Made by a program: the position numbers and the translations under genes. A stretch of DNA of 44,034 nt from an uncultured Erysipelothrix sp. (lineage in GTDB: Bacteria; Bacillota_I; Bacilli_A; Erysipelotrichales; Erysipelotrichaceae), in NCBI GenBank assembly GCA_947631935.1, contig CANRNG010000006.1, positions 1 through 44,034 of the forward strand. The letters are read 5' to 3'. This document shows positions 4,923-17,772 of this stretch, in pieces. The stretch's first letter is position 1. Each line of letters starts with the position of its first letter. The notes beneath the pieces were generated by a model. That model saw nothing but the letters and a program-made list of their open reading frames with translations, was not told the origin of the DNA and did not search any database.

Positions 4923-5198
4923 ATGAAAATTATTATCAATGAGGAAACATCGAAATGGTTTGAAGAAAATGTAGATTTCTCAGTGACGGCATACTTAAGA
5001 TTTTATCCAAGTTTATCTAGAGGATCAGATTCTGGTTTTTCCTTTGGAATTTTTCCACTGATTCCAACACGCCCCCATACAGTAACAGTCGTCAATGACA
5101 TTACTTACTACATTGAAGAAGGGGATCAATGGATATTTGAGAATAAAGATCTTGTGGTTACTTTGGGTGCGCGGGGTCCTGTCTATCGTTTTGAATAA
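4923..5198 (+). CDS. HesB/YneR-like (IscA-fold) protein
   Basis: MKIIINEETSKWFEENVDFSVTAYLRFYPSLSRGSDSGFSFGIFP...ITYYIEEGDQWIFENKDLVV resembles the Firmicutes YneR/HesB-like family. Confidence 0.75.
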   Translation: MKIIINEETSKWFEENVDFSVTAYLRFYPSLSRGSDSGFSFGIFPLIPTRPHTVTVVNDITYYIEEGDQWIFENKDLVVTLGARGPVYRFE

Positions 5199-5199
5199 A

Positions 5200-5227
5200 G
5201 CTTCCTATAAAAAGGGAAGTTTTTTTC
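5200..5227 (+). terminator. Rho-independent terminator
   Basis: AGCTTCC-tataaaaa-GGGAAGTTTTTTT. Confidence 0.7.
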
Positions 5228-5622: not shown

Positions 5623-6768
5623 ATGAAAGATATTGTATCAATGATTTTTGATAATGCGCTCACAACTTTGGAAAGAAATGAAGTAAATAATTATATATAT
5701 TCTTTAATACCAGATATCGAGGAAAAATTGATAGCTCCTAACTTGAGCGATCTATTTGATGTTGAAACCTCTCCAATTTCATTTGAATTAAACTTTAATA
5801 TTGATAACGAAACTTACAATTGTATATTAAATCTCATTGTCAGTGCCTTTCCAAGAAATTTGTTTAGAAACACAAATTCTTGGGATGGCTTAAGAAAGTT
5901 TTATCAAAAAACTGTAACACCAATATTTACTGAAAATGAAAATGAAGTTTCTTCTGACAATCTTATTTCTGAAAGTAAAATTAAATTGGATAGATTTAAA
6001 AATATTCCAACAGGTTATGAATCTTTCGTCCATGGTGAATTTAACAATCAGTTTGATATGAATGATATTGTTTCAAGTGACAAAGGAATTTTTCATGAGG
6101 TCGTAGTTCTTGAAGATGGAAGTGCAGTTGGTCGAGGTAGCAACGTTTCTTGTCAGCTAGATTTTGATAAATCAAGTACGGACTATGTTGATGTCAAATG
6201 TGGTAGATTCTTTACTGCGCTACTCAAGAAAGATGGAACTGTAGACGTTCATGGCCTAACTTTAGATTACTTTATGAATATGAACCCACATAAGATTGGG
6301 GAATTGTTGAATTGGTACTATATCGGAGATTCATTCTTAGATGATTATGGTCCTGATAAGTACTACCCTAGAAATTTAAGATTCGTAGACATGCCACATG
6401 AGGAATTTGATGGATTCACAGACAATAAGATTCAAATTCTATCTACTAATGGTGAGGTAGTTAGAGAATATGGTGAAGTATCATTAAATACAATATTTAT
6501 GGGCACTTTCTTTAAAAACTTTTCGATGTATAGACAAATGATTGAATCTGAGTATACATATAAGTTTATGCCAGATTACGTTTGGGAAAGAATGACAACC
6601 CATAAGTTTACGACCAAATTGAACCATATCGCTTCAATAGAAGTTATAGATGATGCTTTATTCGCGATTGATAAAGAAGGAAACAAGTTAACATTATTGG
6701 ATGAAGATAAATTCTTCAATTCTTATACGGAATATTGTGATGAAAATTCGGATACAAATTTCTCTTAA
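5623..6768 (+). CDS. RCC1-repeat-like protein, first gene of defence cluster
   Basis: RBS AGGAGGGT. Residues ~155-211: GIFHEVVVLEDGSAVGRGSNVSCQLDF...YVDVKCGRFFTALLKKDGTVDVHG match the RCC1 blade consensus (GxxHxxxLxxDGxVxxxGxNxxxQL / V.CG..FTALL..DGTV...G). Confidence 0.65.
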   Translation: MKDIVSMIFDNALTTLERNEVNNYIYSLIPDIEEKLIAPNLSDLFDVETSPISFELNFNIDNETYNCILNLIVSAFPRNLFRNTNSWDGLRKFYQKTVTPIFTENENEVSSDNLISESKIKLDRFKNIPTGYESFVHGEFNNQFDMNDIVSSDKGIFHEVVVLEDGSAVGRGSNVSCQLDFDKSSTDYVDVKCGRFFTALLKKDGTVDVHGLTLDYFMNMNPHKIGELLNWYYIGDSFLDDYGPDKYYPRNLRFVDMPHEEFDGFTDNKIQILSTNGEVVREYGEVSLNTIFMGTFFKNFSMYRQMIESEYTYKFMPDYVWERMTTHKFTTKLNHIASIEVIDDALFAIDKEGNKLTLLDEDKFFNSYTEYCDENSDTNFS

Positions 6769-6863
6769 ATTGAAAATATAGTCATAACTTTATCTTAAAT
6801 GTTAAATATTGGCGTATTATGATAGAATTTAAATATGTATTAAATCAACGTGGAGGGTATTAA

Positions 6864-9647
6864 ATGAACATAAATTACGATGATCCAAGGTTCGCAAAAC
6901 CTATAAATTGGATTCAAGAGAATATTTTACAAGAACATCCATATGAGTTTATTAAAAATGGTCGTGGAAATAGCCAAGAGGACTTACATTCGTTTTTAGA
7001 TTTTATGACAAAATATCAAGATTGGGACATAGAGGTTCCTGAGTGGATTGAACTAGTGGATAGAGAATTTAAAGATAGTGAAGAAAGAAAAGCGTTTAAA
7101 GAAATTCAAGATAAATCTATCATTGTTTCGATTGGTGAGGATAATGGTCTTTCAGCTTCAAAGCACAATCAAAGTTCATGGCAAAAGTATAGAAGATTGC
7201 TAGAGCGCAAAAATTTTGATAAATATACGATTGACTCAATAGAACGAGATAGTGAAAGTATCCTAAGAAAACTTAGCACAAATACACAAGATAGCGATTC
7301 TATAAAAGGTTTGGCTGTTGGTAGTGTTCAATCAGGAAAAACAACAAATATGGCAGCTTTAATGGCTATGGCGGCTGATGTAGGATGGAATGTATTTATA
7401 GTGTTTTCAGGAACTATTGATAACTTAAGAGTACAAACAGAAAGAAGGCTTTATAACGAGCTTGCTTCGACAAACGGCAATGTTAATTGGGAGTTGATTG
7501 AAAAGTCTTCAATGGATGCGGCTAGCGCTAGGACTCCTCAAAATTTAGATTTTAATAACAATCAATATTTGATTGTTACTTTAAAACAAAAACAAAGACT
7601 TAAAAGGTTATATAAATGGCTTATATCTGACAAAGCAAAAGCCAATCAAATGCGAATACTGATAATAGATGATGAAGCAGACCAAGCGAGTGTAAATACA
7701 AGTGATTTAACTAAGGCTGAAAGAAATGCGATCAATAGAGAAATTGTTCGGCTTGTAAACAATGAAAATGACACTCAATTTAAATCTGTAAACTATATTG
7801 GGTATACCGCAACCCCTTATGCGAATGTTTTGAGTGAAAGTGCAGATGAATCACTTTATCCAAAAGATTTTATTGCTGTTTTAGAACAATCACGCAATTA
7901 TATTGGTCCAAGCCAAATTTTCGGAGTGGAGGGCGAGGACAATTATCCGGGAATGGATATTGTTAATGAAATTAATAAGATAAATCATTTAGAATTCAAC
8001 CAAATTGGAGATATTCATTTAGGTAAAGGAAATGATTTACCGAGGGCACTCAAAGAGTCAATCGCGTATTTTATTGCGGCATCAGCCTCGTTAAGGTTAC
8101 ACCGATTTGAAAGTCCAGTTAGCATGTTAATCCATACAAGTATTAAACAAGCACATCATGACAATGTAGGTAAGTTGATTCAAAATTGGTTGTCAAATGA
8201 AACTGAAGAAGTCCTAGAAATTTCTGAAAGAGTATGGAAAGAACAACATTCAAAGTTTACAATAGATCATTTTAAAGAAAGTGCAAGATTGTATTCTCAT
8301 AATATTGATACAACCAAAAAACCTCACAAATTCTCGGAGTTAGTTAACGAAGTTAGAAGTATCCTAAAAGATGTATCTCCGATAACTAGTATTGAAAAAG
8401 GGGAATATAGTTATCATGATGGATTGCATATTAGTATCGATAACAGTGCTTACAATAAAATTATAAATGAAGATGAAGTATACCGTTTACTTTACCCAAC
8501 CGATGAAGCGGTTCGAAATAAAACTCCGATATTTTTAGTTGTTGGCGGAGCAACACTTTCGAGAGGGCTTACTTTAGAAGGATTAATTTCTACGTACTTT
8601 GTTAGAAACTCAGGCCAGGCTGATACCCTTATGCAAATGGGAAGATGGTTTGGGTTTAGAATCGGGTATGAATTATATCCTAGAATTTGGATGAGTAGTA
8701 GCTCTATAGATCAATTTTCATATTTAGCGGACCTAGACTTTTCACTTAGAAAAGAAATAAAAGAACACAATGTACTAGGTTATACACCTAAGGATGTAGG
8801 GATTAAAGTAAAAACATCACCGAAAGCTATTAGATTAAAAGTTACCTCAGATAATAAAAGTCGAGGTAAAATCGAAAGTGATTTTGATTTTACAGGAGCA
8901 AGTATTCAATCAACTATTTTCATGAATGATGACGAAGTAATGGAAAGTAACTTGCAGCTATTAACTAATTTTATAGATGATTTGGGCTCTCCTAAAATTA
9001 TTCAAAGGGAAGGTATGAATTCTGTATATTGGGAAAATGTCGAATTCAATTTATTTAAGGACTATCTTCATAAGCTAAAATTTAGTGAACGATTCAGAAT
9101 GGGAAATAATATGGAAGCCTTTATTAACTGGGTTGATGATATGACTGAAAAAAGATTACTTGAAAATTGGAATGTAATTGCAGTTGGTAAAGGTGAAATT
9201 AACAGTCCTGAAAATAATTGGCACCAAAAACATTTTTCGTGGAATACAATCCAACGTTCAAAAGTTAAAGAAGCTCGTGTTGACGATATTAGAATTCAAT
9301 CATTAAGGGCTCCTTTGGATTTGTACAGAGATATTGATATATCAAAAATAGAAGAGTTAGATCTAATTGAAATGGTAAAGGGTGGTCATTCTTCGAACTA
9401 TATGGAAGTGAGAAGAAGACTTGGACTGTTAAAAACACCTCAAATAATGTTATATCGAATTGACAAAAACTCTAAAAATAGTACAAGCTCTAAAACTAGA
9501 GAAGACCTCAATACAAAATATGATTTAGCTGGTATTTATATTTCAATTCCTGGAGGAGTTAAAGGTCAAAATTATGTTACACACTTAACCATTAAAATTG
9601 ATGCCAATGACAAATTAATTGCAGAGTACGATATAGGGGATGATTAA
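6864..9647 (+). CDS. Z1 domain-containing superfamily II ATPase/helicase-like protein of restriction-modification-type system
   Basis: Walker A VGSVQSGKTTN; Walker B RILIIDDEADQAS; motif III YIGYTATPYANV; Z1-type GGATLSRGLTLEGLISTYFVRNSGQADTLMQMGRWFGFR. Confidence 0.92.
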   Translation: MNINYDDPRFAKPINWIQENILQEHPYEFIKNGRGNSQEDLHSFLDFMTKYQDWDIEVPEWIELVDREFKDSEERKAFKEIQDKSIIVSIGEDNGLSASKHNQSSWQKYRRLLERKNFDKYTIDSIERDSESILRKLSTNTQDSDSIKGLAVGSVQSGKTTNMAALMAMAADVGWNVFIVFSGTIDNLRVQTERRLYNELASTNGNVNWELIEKSSMDAASARTPQNLDFNNNQYLIVTLKQKQRLKRLYKWLISDKAKANQMRILIIDDEADQASVNTSDLTKAERNAINREIVRLVNNENDTQFKSVNYIGYTATPYANVLSESADESLYPKDFIAVLEQSRNYIGPSQIFGVEGEDNYPGMDIVNEINKINHLEFNQIGDIHLGKGNDLPRALKESIAYFIAASASLRLHRFESPVSMLIHTSIKQAHHDNVGKLIQNWLSNETEEVLEISERVWKEQHSKFTIDHFKESARLYSHNIDTTKKPHKFSELVNEVRSILKDVSPITSIEKGEYSYHDGLHISIDNSAYNKIINEDEVYRLLYPTDEAVRNKTPIFLVVGGATLSRGLTLEGLISTYFVRNSGQADTLMQMGRWFGFRIGYELYPRIWMSSSSIDQFSYLADLDFSLRKEIKEHNVLGYTPKDVGIKVKTSPKAIRLKVTSDNKSRGKIESDFDFTGASIQSTIFMNDDEVMESNLQLLTNFIDDLGSPKIIQREGMNSVYWENVEFNLFKDYLHKLKFSERFRMGNNMEAFINWVDDMTEKRLLENWNVIAVGKGEINSPENNWHQKHFSWNTIQRSKVKEARVDDIRIQSLRAPLDLYRDIDISKIEELDLIEMVKGGHSSNYMEVRRRLGLLKTPQIMLYRIDKNSKNSTSSKTREDLNTKYDLAGIYISIPGGVKGQNYVTHLTIKIDANDKLIAEYDIGDD

Positions 9648-9650
9648 TAT

Positions 9651-11714
9651 ATGTTAAATATAGAAATATTAGAAGTTGGAAAAAATGTTACGACTGGAAG
9701 TGGTGTGTTAAAAGTATTACAAAACTCTCACAGCCCTATTGCAGATTTATTTGTTAGAGAATCAATTCAAAACTCGTTGGATGCAGGAAACGAGCAAGGA
9801 AGCTTTGTTAATGTACGTTTTATAGTGGATAATTTTAACAACCATGACTTTTCTGACAATTTAGAAAAAATAGGTCCGATACTTAAAGAAAAATATAAAA
9901 AAGAAGAAAGTTTTTTGGCGATTAGAGATTCCGGGACAATAGGACTAACAGGTCCATTATCACATGATGATATGAATGGCCAAAATTTCGGGAACTTATT
10001 AAAATTGGTCTATGATCTCGCTAAACCACAAGAAAAACAAGGGGCTGGAGGTTCTTGGGGTTATGGTAAAACTATTTTCTATAGAATGGGAATCGGGCTC
10101 GTGATATACTACTCACGTATTAAATTACCGTCAGGAAAATACCAAGAAAGATTGGCTGTAGCGATGGTAGAAGATGAAGGTTTAGATGATGCAATAATAC
10201 CTCCATATAAAGGTGATACTCGGAGTGGTGTAGCTTGGTGGGGAGAAAGAACTACAACCAACAGTACTGAACCAATCACCGACAGTGAAGAGATAGAAAA
10301 AATACTAAGTATTTTTAATTTAGAAACATACTATGGTAAGGAAACTGGTACAACAGTTATTATTCCTTATATTAATGAGAAAAAAATTCTCCAACATAAC
10401 GAAATAGAAGCAAAGAACGGTAAAACTACTTCTACTATATATGATAGTTTGATTGATTACTTAAAAATTTCTGTGCAAAGATGGTATGCACCACGATTAA
10501 ACAATCATCAGTACAGCTATAACAAAAAGAAGTATTTGCGTGTAAAATTTAATAATGATGACTTAGATTCGCACGATCAAGATCCGTACTTTAGAGTATT
10601 ACTTGATATGTACAATTATGCAATCACCGATAATGAAAAAGCTATTAGTTATATCGATGATCGTAAGAAACTATTGAGGGAGACAATCTTTATCAATTCT
10701 TCAAGCGATGCAGCGCTAGACGAGAGAAATGTTGGTACATTAGTTTTCGGTGTATTCAACTATCAAGAATTGGGAATGTCTAGATCAAACTCACCACTTA
10801 ACCCTCATTTTTTATCAAATATAGAATTAACAGCTAATGACATTAATTCTACAATTGTAACTTTTTGTAGACAACCAGGTATGCTTGTAGATTACGTAGA
10901 TAAAGGGGATTGGGCGCATAACCTTCCTTCAAAAAATGAGGGTGAATATATAATCGCTTTATTTGTTTTGAATTCTAACAATAAAATTAGGTTTAATAAT
11001 GATAAATATGTTCCATTAGAAGAATATATTCGAAAAGGAGAAGAAGCTGATCACATTAGATGGGAAGATCATCAATCATATGGTGTTAATCCGAAAATAG
11101 TATCTAGAATTCAAAGTAATGTTATATCTAAATTGAGGCAAGCTTTTGATGAATTAGTTAAAGAAAAACCAATGGACAACGACAGTCGATTGTCTAGAAG
11201 AGCGGGCGATCTTATTCTGCCTGAAAATAACTTTGGTAATAAGGCAAGAAAAATACCAACGAAAAAAAGAGAAAATGCGGGATTATCAAGAAATACAAGT
11301 CATTGTAAAACAACTATTTTTAATGACAAAATAAAGTATAAAAAAGATGGTATAGAAATACCAATTCAATTTCAAGTTCTGAATAGTAACTTAAAAACCA
11401 TTTATGTTGACTTAGAAATAAAACAAGAATCGAGTAGCCTATCTATAGACAAGTTGGAAAAAGAAATTGATAAACCAAGCCCAATTTCAATTGGAAAGCT
11501 AAATTTAGTAAGCAATGACTCAACTTATATCTTCGATGAAAAAAACATTGATAAAGAAATTTCACTTTCTCGAACAAATTTCGGAACTGTATATCAAGTG
11601 CACCTATCCAAAAGTTTTAGTGTTGGTGAAATTTTATTAGGAACGATTTTTATTAGCGGAACATCCAAAGAATTTGTGCCGGTATTAAGGCTAAAATCAG
11701 CAAAGGGGGAATAA
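9651..11714 (+). CDS. GHKL-type (Hsp90/MutL/MORC-like, paraMORC) ATPase
   Basis: N-box FVRESIQNSLDAG; G1 box FLAIRDSGTIGLTGPL; G2 box GAGGSWGYGKTIFYRMG. Confidence 0.9.
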   Translation: MLNIEILEVGKNVTTGSGVLKVLQNSHSPIADLFVRESIQNSLDAGNEQGSFVNVRFIVDNFNNHDFSDNLEKIGPILKEKYKKEESFLAIRDSGTIGLTGPLSHDDMNGQNFGNLLKLVYDLAKPQEKQGAGGSWGYGKTIFYRMGIGLVIYYSRIKLPSGKYQERLAVAMVEDEGLDDAIIPPYKGDTRSGVAWWGERTTTNSTEPITDSEEIEKILSIFNLETYYGKETGTTVIIPYINEKKILQHNEIEAKNGKTTSTIYDSLIDYLKISVQRWYAPRLNNHQYSYNKKKYLRVKFNNDDLDSHDQDPYFRVLLDMYNYAITDNEKAISYIDDRKKLLRETIFINSSSDAALDERNVGTLVFGVFNYQELGMSRSNSPLNPHFLSNIELTANDINSTIVTFCRQPGMLVDYVDKGDWAHNLPSKNEGEYIIALFVLNSNNKIRFNNDKYVPLEEYIRKGEEADHIRWEDHQSYGVNPKIVSRIQSNVISKLRQAFDELVKEKPMDNDSRLSRRAGDLILPENNFGNKARKIPTKKRENAGLSRNTSHCKTTIFNDKIKYKKDGIEIPIQFQVLNSNLKTIYVDLEIKQESSSLSIDKLEKEIDKPSPISIGKLNLVSNDSTYIFDEKNIDKEISLSRTNFGTVYQVHLSKSFSVGEILLGTIFISGTSKEFVPVLRLKSAKGE

Positions 11715-11717
11715 AAC

Positions 11718-12656
11718 ATGAAAATTGATTTACCACTTTATCCGGTATTGAATGAAGAATTATTGGAATTAATTGATGTAAATTTAGAGAATATAGAATT
11801 TAAATTTCATAAAAAAATTAAGGTTAAAAATAGAGAAACAATATCTATTGAAAAAATCGAAGTAGAGGATAATCTATCAAGTGTAATTGAAATCAATGGT
11901 CCGTCAGTGACTTGGGATGTTGCATATGATAATTTAATAATTAATCAGAAACTTTATATTAAAAACCCGAAATTGTTGTTTGGGGATTATGGACTTGCTG
12001 AGAGCGGTGCAAAAATAGGTATAGGATTTGTTTGGTATTCAAGAGAGTCTAAACAAAGGGGTGCAAAACATATATCTAGCTTTTCATCAAATGATTCGGT
12101 AATAAGTGAAGCATTTGAAGTGTCTTTTGAACCTGGTCAATTACGTGGTAATTTACACTACGAAATAATCTTGTTTATTGATGAAATTGATGAATCCCGT
12201 AGTAGTTATCTTGCGAATGAGTATGGTACTGTTCTAGGTAATATTTATAGTGTGGAGTTAGTACTAGAAGGAAACTCTTCATCATTTCCTATTGTTTCGA
12301 TAGAGGATGATAATCAACCATTGTGGACCTTATATTGTAATTGGGGAGACCTTTCGGATCTGTTCGAAGACAGTGTTAGGTTGAGGTTAAATTTTAATCA
12401 TAAAGATTATGCACTTTTAAATGTTGAATCCAAAAAATACAATGATGAATTTTTTAAACAAATAATGATTAATGTTGTAGCAATAATAATTCAAACTGCC
12501 TTTGATAAGAACGAAATAGAACTCGTTGAAGAGACAGAATATTTTCAACCTGGAACCATGGGGTCTTTAATAAAGTATTATTTGGAAACTCACCAAGTTA
12601 AGTATGATACCCCCACGGACATCTTTTCTTCTGTTATGCGAAGTATCTGGAGGTAA
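11718..12656 (+). CDS. Uncharacterised protein of Z1/GHKL cluster
   Basis: 312-aa ORF directly downstream of the GHKL ATPase (3-nt gap), good RBS (AAAGGGGG), no recognisable catalytic motif. Confidence 0.85.
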   Translation: MKIDLPLYPVLNEELLELIDVNLENIEFKFHKKIKVKNRETISIEKIEVEDNLSSVIEINGPSVTWDVAYDNLIINQKLYIKNPKLLFGDYGLAESGAKIGIGFVWYSRESKQRGAKHISSFSSNDSVISEAFEVSFEPGQLRGNLHYEIILFIDEIDESRSSYLANEYGTVLGNIYSVELVLEGNSSSFPIVSIEDDNQPLWTLYCNWGDLSDLFEDSVRLRLNFNHKDYALLNVESKKYNDEFFKQIMINVVAIIIQTAFDKNEIELVEETEYFQPGTMGSLIKYYLETHQVKYDTPTDIFSSVMRSIWR

Positions 12657-12660
12657 TTAC

Positions 12661-13422
12661 ATGAACTTTAAATATATGTCAAAAATTGAAGCTGAGAAAG
12701 CTATGACTGAAGCAAAAGGTGATACAAAAAAATTACAAGCATTAAATAATAGTGAGTTTTATGAAAGACTAAGAAAAGAACTTCAACTTAGAAGTAGAAC
12801 TATTAAGTATAAATATTTTGGAGACCGAGGGGATATAAGTAAAAAACCAAAAATACAAGGATACAAATATGATTTACTATTTGGACTTGAACTATATGAA
12901 GTACTTACAAGTGAAGTAGAATTTAAAATTTCACTTCGAGAAGCATCTAATCCTGAATTTTGGATATACTTGTCAGTTGTTGGTATTCCTGATATTATAT
13001 CAGAAAGATGGGAAGGTCATAACTCGACTAGATTCTATTCCCAAAACACTAGAAATTGGCTCTATACATTATGGTGGTATATTCATTTGTCGTGGCAAGG
13101 AAGTATCGCTGATACAAAAAAAATAATTGAGAAAAACTCAACCGATACAATTTTAAACTTAGTAGAAAGAACATCACCAAAAGGATATAATATAAAATTA
13201 TATAGAACCTTAATGCATGAGTATTCTAAAATAAATAAGGCGTCTATCAAAAATAAAGGAAGAGATATTTTTAGAACGATTCAAGTAACGAACACTTCAC
13301 TAATTCAAACGATTGAACCTTCTTTGTTTAAGGGTGGAGAAATTACATATGTTAAGAAGCTGTTTAAATTAATAAATCTAGTAGAAGTAAATGGTGAATA
13401 TGTTGAAAAGGAGGAAGAATAA
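12661..13422 (+). CDS. Uncharacterised protein (DUF6339-like) of Z1/GHKL cluster
   Basis: ATG 12661 with RBS TGGAGG; ...NTRNWLYTLWWYIHLSWQGSIADTK... as I recall from DUF6339 proteins. The ORF-track start (12604) overlaps the previous gene. Confidence 0.75.
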   Translation: MNFKYMSKIEAEKAMTEAKGDTKKLQALNNSEFYERLRKELQLRSRTIKYKYFGDRGDISKKPKIQGYKYDLLFGLELYEVLTSEVEFKISLREASNPEFWIYLSVVGIPDIISERWEGHNSTRFYSQNTRNWLYTLWWYIHLSWQGSIADTKKIIEKNSTDTILNLVERTSPKGYNIKLYRTLMHEYSKINKASIKNKGRDIFRTIQVTNTSLIQTIEPSLFKGGEITYVKKLFKLINLVEVNGEYVEKEEE

Positions 13423-14336
13423 TGACCGAATTACTTAATGAAATTATTGAACACTTTATGACTTTTAAGATGGGTGCAAGACCTTTAGAAGGTTTTGATA
13501 AACAAAAATTAACCATCACTCTAAAACATCCTGAGTATTACGGAGTCGGAATTTTAAATGTTAATAATGTTCAGGTCAACGAAAAATTTGCAAATGTAAG
13601 ACTAGAAAATAAAACATTTAATATTAATGGTGAAGAAAACCCTTTCTTAGTCTTATCAAGCACATTATATGAGCATAAATCAAGTTTTGCGCGTCTTTGT
13701 GAAGAATTTTGTAATTTAGGTAAGGATGATTTCAATCGCAACTTAATCACGACCGAGCCCATCAAATGGTGGGAAAAATGGAAAGACTTACTAGGAAATG
13801 TAAGTACTAATAAAACTCCGTATTCTGTAATTGGTGAGCTATTGATTTATAAACAAGAGTTAGAAAAAAAACATGAAAATGTTACATGGGAAGGACCAAA
13901 AGCAAAAAACCATGATATCGAGGGTGATGAGTATCATATAGAAGTTAAGTCAACATTACTACAATATGCCAATGAGGTCACTATTTCTAGTCAATTCCAG
14001 CTGGATGGGAATTATGACTTATATTTAGTCTTACTTAAGATGCAAGAAAGCAGTGATGGTATCTCAATTAATAGCTTAGTTGATCAAATAATAAGTTATG
14101 GGGTGGATGTAGACGGTGTTGAAATAAAATTGGGTGCTTTGGGGATGGCGCATGGTAGTAACGTTAGAGAGAAAAAATTTAGAGTGGTAGAAGGACGAAA
14201 ATATAAAATTGACGAATCTTTCCCAGTTATTAATGCGGAGTCATTTAAAGGTGATCAAGTTCCGAGATATGTGAAAAAAATAAATTATACAATCGATCTT
14301 TCTTCGTTCGAGTATGATACAATTGAGTTTGACTAA
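13422..14336 (+). CDS. PD-(D/E)XK motif protein (DUF4420-like), putative restriction endonuclease
   Basis: HDIEGDEYHIEVKST (PD-(D/E)XK-like D...EVK signature); start overlaps the stop of the upstream gene. Confidence 0.85.
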   Translation: MTELLNEIIEHFMTFKMGARPLEGFDKQKLTITLKHPEYYGVGILNVNNVQVNEKFANVRLENKTFNINGEENPFLVLSSTLYEHKSSFARLCEEFCNLGKDDFNRNLITTEPIKWWEKWKDLLGNVSTNKTPYSVIGELLIYKQELEKKHENVTWEGPKAKNHDIEGDEYHIEVKSTLLQYANEVTISSQFQLDGNYDLYLVLLKMQESSDGISINSLVDQIISYGVDVDGVEIKLGALGMAHGSNVREKKFRVVEGRKYKIDESFPVINAESFKGDQVPRYVKKINYTIDLSSFEYDTIEFD

Positions 14337-15735: not shown

Positions 15736-16062
15736 ATGCATGAAATTATAGAGCGCATTACAAAATTTAATAATGACAGAGACTGGGATCAATTTCATAG
15801 CCCTGAAAACTTAGCAAAGTCAATTGCTATTGAAGCAGGAGAATTGTTGGAAAATTTTCAATGGAATTCAGGTTATGATAAAGAAAAAGTAGTGGATGAG
15901 TTGGCCGATATTTTGATATATGCTCTTACTTTATCCAAGAAGATTGGAATTGATGCCAAAGAAATTATTATGAAGAAAATTGATTTCAATGAAGAGAGAT
16001 ATAATGTTAAGAATTCAAAAGGAAATAGCAAGAAGTATACGGAGTTTGTAGATGAAGATTAA
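15736..16062 (+). CDS. MazG-like nucleotide pyrophosphohydrolase
   Basis: AIEAGELLENFQW...VVDELADILIYALTLSKKIGID (ExxE...ExxD of the all-alpha NTP-PPase family). Own RBS GGAGGG. Confidence 0.9.
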   Translation: MHEIIERITKFNNDRDWDQFHSPENLAKSIAIEAGELLENFQWNSGYDKEKVVDELADILIYALTLSKKIGIDAKEIIMKKIDFNEERYNVKNSKGNSKKYTEFVDED

Positions 16063-17737
16063 GAGTATGCCTTTTGATAAAGAAACAGCAAATAAATTAT
16101 CACAAAATGATATAGCGAGGAATTGGCCTGTAGTCTATATTCTCAATAATCGTAAAGAGGCTTATATTGGTGAGACAACAAGTGCATCAAATCGTTTAAA
16201 ACAGCATCTTGATAATGATGATAAAAAAAGATTGACGGATGTGAGTATAATTATAGATGATCGATTTAATAAATCTGCTGTTTTAGATATAGAATCAAAA
16301 TTGATTGAGTATATGTCTGCCGATCAACTTTTTGAGTTGCAAAATAGCAACAGTGGTATGCGTAATCATAATTACTACGATAAAGTGTTCTATGAAGCTT
16401 TGTTTCGGGATATTTGGAACAACCTAAAAAAGAAAAAGATTGTTAAGCATGATATAGATTTATTAATGAATTCAGATTTGTTTAAGTATACGCCATATAA
16501 GCAATTAACAACTGAGCAGTTTGATGTTGTTTTTGAAATTGTTTTGGATCTATTGATTTCAATTCAAATTGGGACTGATTTGACTGTGGTTGTGAATGGA
16601 GAATCTGGAACGGGTAAAACAGTCTTGGCCATGTATATCATGAAGATGGTAGCAGACAATAGTATGTTAGAACTCTTGGGTAGTATTGACGATCAATACA
16701 TTGAACGTTTTATTGAGATGCAAGAAAAGTTGAAGAACTTTTCTGTAGCATTGGTAGTGCCGCAAAGTTCCCTTAGAGCTTCTTTGAAGCGTGTTGCAAA
16801 AGAAATTAAGGGACTTAAGGCAAATATGATTATTGGCCCAACCGAAGCTGCTAGAGGTAATTATGATCTATTGATTGTTGACGAAGCCCACCGTTTGAAA
16901 CAAAGAAAAAATTTAGTAAATATGGGTTCATATGATCAATTGAATAGAGATAAGGGATATGCCATTGATACAACTCAATTAAAATGGATTATGGACGCAT
17001 CTCCTTATCAAATCCTTTTTTACGACGCTGAACAAAGTGTAATGCCCAGTGATGTAAGTGATGAAGAGTTCTTAAAAGCATCTACTGGGAAAAATAGTAA
17101 ACAATATGTTATTAAGTCGCAGTTAAGGGTTAAAGGTGGAAATGACTATTTAAACTACATAAAAAGTATTCTAAGTGATACGCCACCACTTCATCCAGTC
17201 ACTTTTGGTGAATATGATTTTGTGCTATTTGAGAATATTACGAGTATGAAAAATGAAATTTTAGATAAAGAGAACATGTTTGGGTTGTCTCGATTGGTTG
17301 CTGGGTACGCTTGGAAGTGGAATACAAAAGGACTGAATTACGAAGACGCACTTCGAAATAATGTTTATGATATAGAAATTGAAAATGAGCGTTTTATTTG
17401 GAACCAAGCAAATATTGGTTGGGTTAATTCGAAAAATGCAATTAATGAAGTTGGAAGCATTCATACCATTCAGGGGTATGACTTGAATTATGTGGGCGTG
17501 ATCATCGGTCCAGAATTGTCATATGATTTTTCTCGGAATGAATTTGTTGTTTACCCAGAAAAATATTTTGATAAAAACGGAAAAAGAACGGTAAAGGATA
17601 TGAATGAATTAAAGAATTATATCCTGAATATTTATAAGGTACTCCTTACACGAGCGATTGAAGGAACATACCTCTATGTTTGTGATGATAATTTGAGAAA
17701 GTATTTGAAGAGGTTTATAAAAATAAATGGTATATAG
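16052..17737 (+). CDS. GIY-YIG nuclease fused to SLFN-g3/DUF2075 helicase domain
   Basis: N-terminal VVYILNNRKEAYIGETTSASNRLKQHL...IESKLIEYM (GIY-YIG); Walker A VVNGESGTGKTVLAMYI; Walker B YDLLIVDEAHRLKQR; C-terminal HTIQGYDLNYVGVIIG and YKVLLTRAIEGTYLYV. Confidence 0.9.
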   Translation: MKIKSMPFDKETANKLSQNDIARNWPVVYILNNRKEAYIGETTSASNRLKQHLDNDDKKRLTDVSIIIDDRFNKSAVLDIESKLIEYMSADQLFELQNSNSGMRNHNYYDKVFYEALFRDIWNNLKKKKIVKHDIDLLMNSDLFKYTPYKQLTTEQFDVVFEIVLDLLISIQIGTDLTVVVNGESGTGKTVLAMYIMKMVADNSMLELLGSIDDQYIERFIEMQEKLKNFSVALVVPQSSLRASLKRVAKEIKGLKANMIIGPTEAARGNYDLLIVDEAHRLKQRKNLVNMGSYDQLNRDKGYAIDTTQLKWIMDASPYQILFYDAEQSVMPSDVSDEEFLKASTGKNSKQYVIKSQLRVKGGNDYLNYIKSILSDTPPLHPVTFGEYDFVLFENITSMKNEILDKENMFGLSRLVAGYAWKWNTKGLNYEDALRNNVYDIEIENERFIWNQANIGWVNSKNAINEVGSIHTIQGYDLNYVGVIIGPELSYDFSRNEFVVYPEKYFDKNGKRTVKDMNELKNYILNIYKVLLTRAIEGTYLYVCDDNLRKYLKRFIKINGI

Positions 17738-17772
17738 AAAAAAGATCCAGTGAGCATTGGATCTTTTTTCTT
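17738..17772. terminator. Rho-independent terminator (bidirectional-looking)
   Basis: AAAAAAGATCCA-gtgagcat-TGGATCTTTTTT. Confidence 0.85.

What the first reader, a model, noticed from the sequence alone, without database searches (positions are those of the whole stretch)
5623..6768. RCC1-like protein as leading gene of a Z1/GHKL restriction-modification-type cluster
The first ORF of the island carries a degenerate RCC1-type segment (residues ~155-211). It is followed by a less conserved C-terminal part (IEVIDDALFAIDKEGNKLTLLDE) that could hold further blades. I know of no established role for an RCC1-fold protein in this class of R-M system. RCC1 propellers generally bind proteins or nucleosomes, so a recognition, scaffold or regulatory subunit is possible. 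That it is a stable part of the system is inferred only from same-strand adjacency; a 95-nt AT-rich gap before the Z1 gene could carry its own promoter.
Basis: partly seen in the sequence, partly recalled or inferred. Interest (0 to 1): 0.8.

Follow-up and report, generated by a model that had tools for sequence, protein, structure and literature searches.

The report
RCC1-repeat orphan beside known R-M operon
A real but so far one-of-a-kind bacterial gene carrying about one and a half RCC1-type repeats sits just in front of an already described restriction-modification-like defence operon, and nothing outside this one genome links it to that operon.

Summary
The ORF is real: window 5623-6768, 381 aa, strong ribosome-binding site. 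The RCC1-type segment is also real but covers only residues ~147-214 (about 1.5 repeats): 25.2 bits against RCC1 repeats from the host's bacterial family, versus at most 9.3 in 2,000 shuffles. No further blades are detectable in residues 1-146 or 212-381, and the only structure prediction (single sequence, pLDDT 34.7) is uninterpretable.

The cluster behind it is an intact Z1 ATPase / paraMORC2-type GHKL / two unknown genes / DUF4420 nuclease / C5-methyltransferase operon, matching restriction-modification-like systems described in 2008 (paraMORC2) and 2022 ('Type I' putative defence system).

In 27 distinct related operons with at least 3 kb read upstream of Z1, none has an RCC1-type protein; that position holds Vsr, HNH, AIPR or methyltransferase genes, or unrelated genes. 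No full-length homolog was found in roughly 900 genomes, plasmids, phages or viral contigs.

Best reading: a lineage-specific accessory gene in the variable slot ahead of a known kind of system, not a conserved subunit. Co-transcription remains possible: no terminator separates it from Z1.

The parts
5623..6768 (+). 381-aa orphan protein P0001, gene immediately 5' of the Z1 operon
   Evidence: ORF with AGGAGGG ribosome-binding site; no full-length homolog found
6061..6264 (+). RCC1-type segment, residues ~147-214, about 1.5 repeats
   Evidence: Repeat HMM 25.2 bits vs shuffle maximum 9.3; hhalign probability 95%; BLIP-II E 0.044; Pfam RCC1_2 E 0.0015
6769..6863 (+). 95-nt gap between P0001 and Z1; possible extended -10 TGATAGAAT at 6820-6828; no terminator
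   Evidence: Sequence, scans, gap table; the -10 is read by eye and untested
6864..9647 (+). Z1-domain ATPase/helicase, 927 aa (Walker A GSVQSGKT, DDEAD, QMGRWFG)
   Evidence: Pfam Z1 E 2.7e-52; MzaC-related; motifs and conserved columns
9651..11714 (+). GHKL ATPase of paraMORC2 type, 687 aa, with ExxxH (E464-H468)
   Evidence: Alignment A1 and 37-sequence conservation; definition from PMC2292703
11718..12656 (+). orf4, 312 aa, conserved in the related operons; predicted beta-sandwich with C-terminal helices
   Evidence: 34 related loci; AlphaFold2 pLDDT 88; no convincing fold match
12661..13422 (+). orf5, 253 aa (start reset from 12604 to fit its relatives), weakly like DUF6339
13422..14336 (+). 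DUF4420 PD-(D/E)XK nuclease, 304 aa (D165...E174-x-K176)
   Evidence: Pfam E 1.8e-28, catalytic columns; the slot is taken by NgoFVII PLD-B3 nuclease in L082 and L096
14357..15625 (+). C5 cytosine methyltransferase, 422 aa (PCQ, ENV, QxRxR)
   Evidence: Pfam E 8.9e-47, motifs
15736..17737 (+). MazG-like protein and GIY-YIG/Schlafen-group-3 helicase following the operon; membership in the system uncertain
   Evidence: MazG-like genes also lie near L060, L074 and L078

Best explanation
Shown: P0001 is an orphan 381-aa protein with about 1.5 RCC1/BLIP-II-type repeats in its middle, one gene ahead of an intact operon of a known kind (Z1 ATPase, paraMORC2 GHKL, orf4, orf5, DUF4420 nuclease, C5 methyltransferase). 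Inferred: the operon restricts unmethylated DNA; the methyltransferase marks self, the nuclease subunit recognises and cuts, the Z1 ATPase drives the complex as in CglI/NgoAVII, and the GHKL protein acts as an ATP-driven clamp. P0001 is not part of that machine. It occupies the variable slot 5' of Z1, where relatives carry Vsr, HNH, AIPR or methyltransferase genes, and is most likely a lineage-specific protein-binding accessory (sensor or regulator) that the core can do without.
For: No RCC1-type protein beside any Z1 gene in the related loci; 27 distinct ones have at least 3 kb read upstream of Z1. The upstream slot varies: Vsr (Pfam E down to 5.5e-25), HNH_4/HNH_2 and AIPR, methyltransferases. 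From Z1 to the MTase the gaps are -1 to 20 nt, but 95 nt separate P0001 from Z1. The recognition/nuclease role is already filled: DUF4420 swaps with an NgoFVII PLD+B3 nuclease, and in CglI/NgoAVII the R-protein recognises DNA while the Z1 N-protein hydrolyses ATP (PMC4267653). The core matches published systems. No full-length homolog anywhere searched.
Against: No terminator was found between P0001 and Z1, and terminator-like hairpins at 5197-5223 and 17736-17771 bound the same-strand run from P0001 to the Schlafen-like helicase; codon usage is island-like. Co-transcription and co-inheritance are therefore possible. With no homologs at all, absence beside other Z1 genes shows only that the gene is not conserved. 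0 of 27 still allows roughly a 10% frequency. No empty site was found to place the island's left boundary.
Confidence: 0.6

Rival explanations
1. P0001 is a dedicated subunit or regulator of this variant of the system: a degenerate propeller that senses a phage protein or scaffolds the complex, co-transcribed with it.
For: Same strand, adjacent, no terminator before Z1, terminator-like hairpins at both ends of the run; intact ORF with strong ribosome-binding site and island-like codon usage; RCC1 and BLIP-II propellers bind proteins (general knowledge).
Against: 0 of 27 related operons carry it; none of the 35 genomes with related systems has a full-length homolog; only 1.5 repeats detectable; 95-nt gap with a possible promoter.
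Confidence: 0.25
2. P0001 is a chimera or decaying gene in the island that captured a fragment of an RCC1-repeat gene and has no role in defence.
For: Repeat confined to ~65 residues with unrelated flanks; 1.5 repeats alone cannot close a propeller; orphan; RCC1-repeat genes occur in other genomes of the same family.
Against: 381 codons remain open with a good ribosome-binding site and native codon usage; no donor RCC1 gene in its own genome at E<=1.
Confidence: 0.15

Closest known systems
Type I putative defence system of PMC9523054 (Nat Commun 2022)
   Same: Z1 protein of ~925 aa, PD-(D/E)XK protein (the paper prints DUF4220), C5 methyltransferase plus three further genes, associated with repair endonucleases; here 927-aa Z1, DUF4420, methyltransferase, GHKL, orf4, orf5
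   Different: That the paper's three further genes equal GHKL, orf4 and orf5 is inferred; no RCC1-type gene is mentioned in the section read
paraMORC2 restriction-modification operons (Iyer et al. 2008, PMC2292703)
   Same: GHKL with ExxxH, SFII/Z1 helicase, RE-fold nuclease, C5 methylase, Vsr in relatives
   Different: P0001 has no counterpart in the text read (parts 1-2 of 4)
MZA (MzaABCDE)
   Same: Z1 protein (MzaC, E 2.6e-78) and PD-(D/E)XK protein (MzaD, E 2.8e-9)
   Different: Far below the NCBIfam cut-offs (264 of 1500 bits; 37 of 420); different GHKL; no AIPR in the window
CglI / NgoAVII (Z1 ATPase plus PLD-B3 nuclease)
   Same: Z1 ATPase with separate nuclease and C5 methyltransferase; L082 and L096 carry an NgoFVII-type nuclease in the same slot
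   Different: CglI/NgoAVII are three-gene systems without GHKL, orf4 or orf5
RCC1 / BLIP-II propellers
   Same: Residues 147-214 match RCC1-type repeats
   Different: Only ~1.5 repeats detectable; closed seven-bladed propeller not shown

Membership tests
paraMORC2 Z1 restriction-modification operon | GHKL ATPase with the conserved ExxxH motif in the S5 part | tested here: met
   E464 and H468 conserved in at least 90% of 37 aligned proteins; definition
paraMORC2 Z1 restriction-modification operon | SFII/Z1 helicase, RE-fold nuclease and DNA methylase in the same operon | tested here: met
Type I putative defence system (PMC9523054) | Core of Z1 ~925 aa, PD-(D/E)XK nuclease and C5 methyltransferase, six genes in all | tested here: met
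   identity of the three further genes inferred, their sequences were not compared
MZA | Scores above NCBIfam cut-offs for MzaC and MzaD | tested here: not met
   263.8 of 1500 and 36.6 of 420 bits
MZA | AIPR protein in the cluster | tested here: not met
   No AIPR among the nine window genes scanned
RCC1 propeller protein | RCC1-type repeat sequence | tested here: met
   25.2 bits vs shuffle maximum 9.3
RCC1 propeller protein | About seven repeats closing a propeller | tested here: not met
   Only residues ~147-214 detectable by sequence
RCC1 propeller protein | Beta-propeller fold of the protein | tested here: inconclusive
   Single-sequence AlphaFold2 pLDDT 34.7
Subunit of the Z1/paraMORC2 system | Conserved co-occurrence with Z1/GHKL | tested here: not met
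   0 of 27 distinct loci
Subunit of the Z1/paraMORC2 system | Requirement for restriction, or physical binding | not testable with these tools
   Needs a bench experiment

The most novel reading that the evidence does not exclude
P0001 is a highly diverged propeller that serves as a dedicated sensor or regulator of this one lineage's Z1/paraMORC2 restriction system, the first RCC1-type partner of such a system.
Probability: 0.18. Interest if true: 0.6.

Novelty: new member of a known kind. Interest (0 to 1): 0.28.

Why it matters
It separates a solid result (a complete Z1/paraMORC2 operon of a published kind, with a nuclease slot that swaps between DUF4420 and NgoFVII-type enzymes) from an attractive but unsupported one (an RCC1 propeller as part of the machine). 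The swap links these largely untested systems to the biochemically studied CglI/NgoAVII enzymes.

Tried and rejected
Homologs of P0001: class and family genomes, plasmids, phages, viral contigs (two queries), 35 genomes holding related systems, and a 339-genome draw from the phylum of one relative gave only RCC1-repeat matches or nothing. C-terminal blades: repeat HMM, hairpin matrix and hhalign gave no support; hairpin-like spots at 265 and 341 are spaced 72-76 residues from each other and from the one at 193, which would suit a ~37-residue period, but they score no better than shuffles and the spacing was noticed after the fact. The first shuffle controls failed technically and were redone. 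AlphaFold2 on P0001 alone was uninformative. Empty-site search in the genus: the chosen flanking gene is not in a syntenic place in relatives. A wider search for more operons in another phylum draw found only two already held. A recognition-subunit role for P0001 was rejected as first choice because the nuclease slot accounts for it.

Full report
OBSERVATION. The window encodes a 381-aa ORF at 5623-6768 on the + strand with a strong ribosome-binding site and codon usage like that of the genes behind it. The RCC1-type segment is genuine but short. Pfam RCC1_2 matches below its cut-off, BLIP-II matches at E 0.044, and RCC1-repeat proteins of the same bacterial family match residues ~139-222. A repeat HMM built from those proteins gives 25.2 bits over 164-211, against at most 9.3 in 2,000 shuffles of the protein. 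By hhalign against a multi-repeat family profile the significant match is confined to 153-212 (probability 95%).

WHAT IS NOT THERE. Residues 1-146 and 212-381 do not score above shuffles with the repeat HMM. Two hairpin-like spots in the C-terminus, at 265 and 341, are at the level of the best shuffled hits. AlphaFold2 without an alignment gave pLDDT 34.7, which says nothing either way. So a 1.5-repeat segment is shown; a propeller is not.

THE CLUSTER. Behind P0001 lie a Z1 ATPase, a GHKL ATPase, orf4, orf5, a DUF4420 PD-(D/E)XK protein and a C5 methyltransferase, with gaps of -1 to 20 nt and intact motifs. The GHKL protein carries the ExxxH motif that typifies paraMORC2. The operon fits the paraMORC2 restriction-modification operons of 2008 (PMC2292703) and the six-gene Type I putative defence system of 2022 (PMC9523054). 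It is related to MZA, but not a member by NCBIfam cut-offs.

COMPARATIVE TEST. One alignment-based scan of genome contigs gave 39 loci, and genome searches added more. The gene order Z1-GHKL-orf4-orf5-(MTase)-nuclease is conserved. The repeat HMM finds none in the 52 loci scanned except L059, which was fetched because of its RCC1 match and holds no Z1 cluster. The position next to Z1 on its 5' side holds Vsr (Pfam; several of these are divergently oriented), HNH or AIPR, methyltransferase genes, or unrelated genes. In L082 and L096 the DUF4420 slot holds an NgoFVII PLD+B3 nuclease, so target recognition and cutting can be assigned to that slot, as in CglI/NgoAVII, where the R-protein binds the site and the Z1 N-protein supplies ATP hydrolysis (PMC4267653).

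LINKAGE IN THIS GENOME. No terminator lies between P0001 and Z1. Terminator-like hairpins at 5197-5223 and 17736-17771 bound the whole + strand run; the total number of terminator-like sites is no more than shuffles give (3 against a mean of 3.9), although the 17736 hairpin, with 16 pairs, is strong. The 95-nt gap has an extended -10-like TGATAGAAT by eye but no promoter in the scan. Co-transcription is therefore open.

ORF4. A 35-sequence alignment gave a confident model (pLDDT 88.1, pTM 0.61): a beta-sandwich followed by helices. The best fold matches (RhoGDI, UNC119) have low TM-scores for the query (at most ~0.31) and are not a family assignment.

VERDICT. P0001 is best read as a lineage-specific accessory gene in a variable slot ahead of a known kind of system (0.6). 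Rivals are a dedicated subunit or regulator (0.25) and a chimeric or decaying gene (0.15). The GHKL-clamp and restriction steps are inferred from families and papers, not shown here.

Noticed in passing
L082:13661-14707 and L096:13635-14642: The DUF4420 nuclease slot of related operons is filled by NgoFVII-type PLD+B3 nucleases, tying these systems to CglI/NgoAVII.
   Followed up: partly
window 15736-16062; L060, L074, L078: MazG-like genes recur next to this class of operon; L074 also has a relative of the Schlafen-group helicase nearby.
   Followed up: partly
L002, L103, L109, L120 and others: A group of proteins of ~570-630 aa with an N-terminal HTH, an apparent transmembrane helix and RCC1 repeats is found in the host's bacterial family; function unknown.
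   Followed up: no
window 11718-12656: orf4, conserved across the operons and without a Pfam hit, has a confident beta-sandwich model (pLDDT 88).
   Followed up: partly
window 12604-13422: The mechanically listed start of orf5 is probably 57 nt too early; relatives and a ribosome-binding site favour 12661.
   Followed up: partly
L053 (G441): A genome of the same genus carries a Z1 cluster with a different, ~490-aa GHKL protein upstream of Z1 (MZA/MORC-like arrangement).
   Followed up: no
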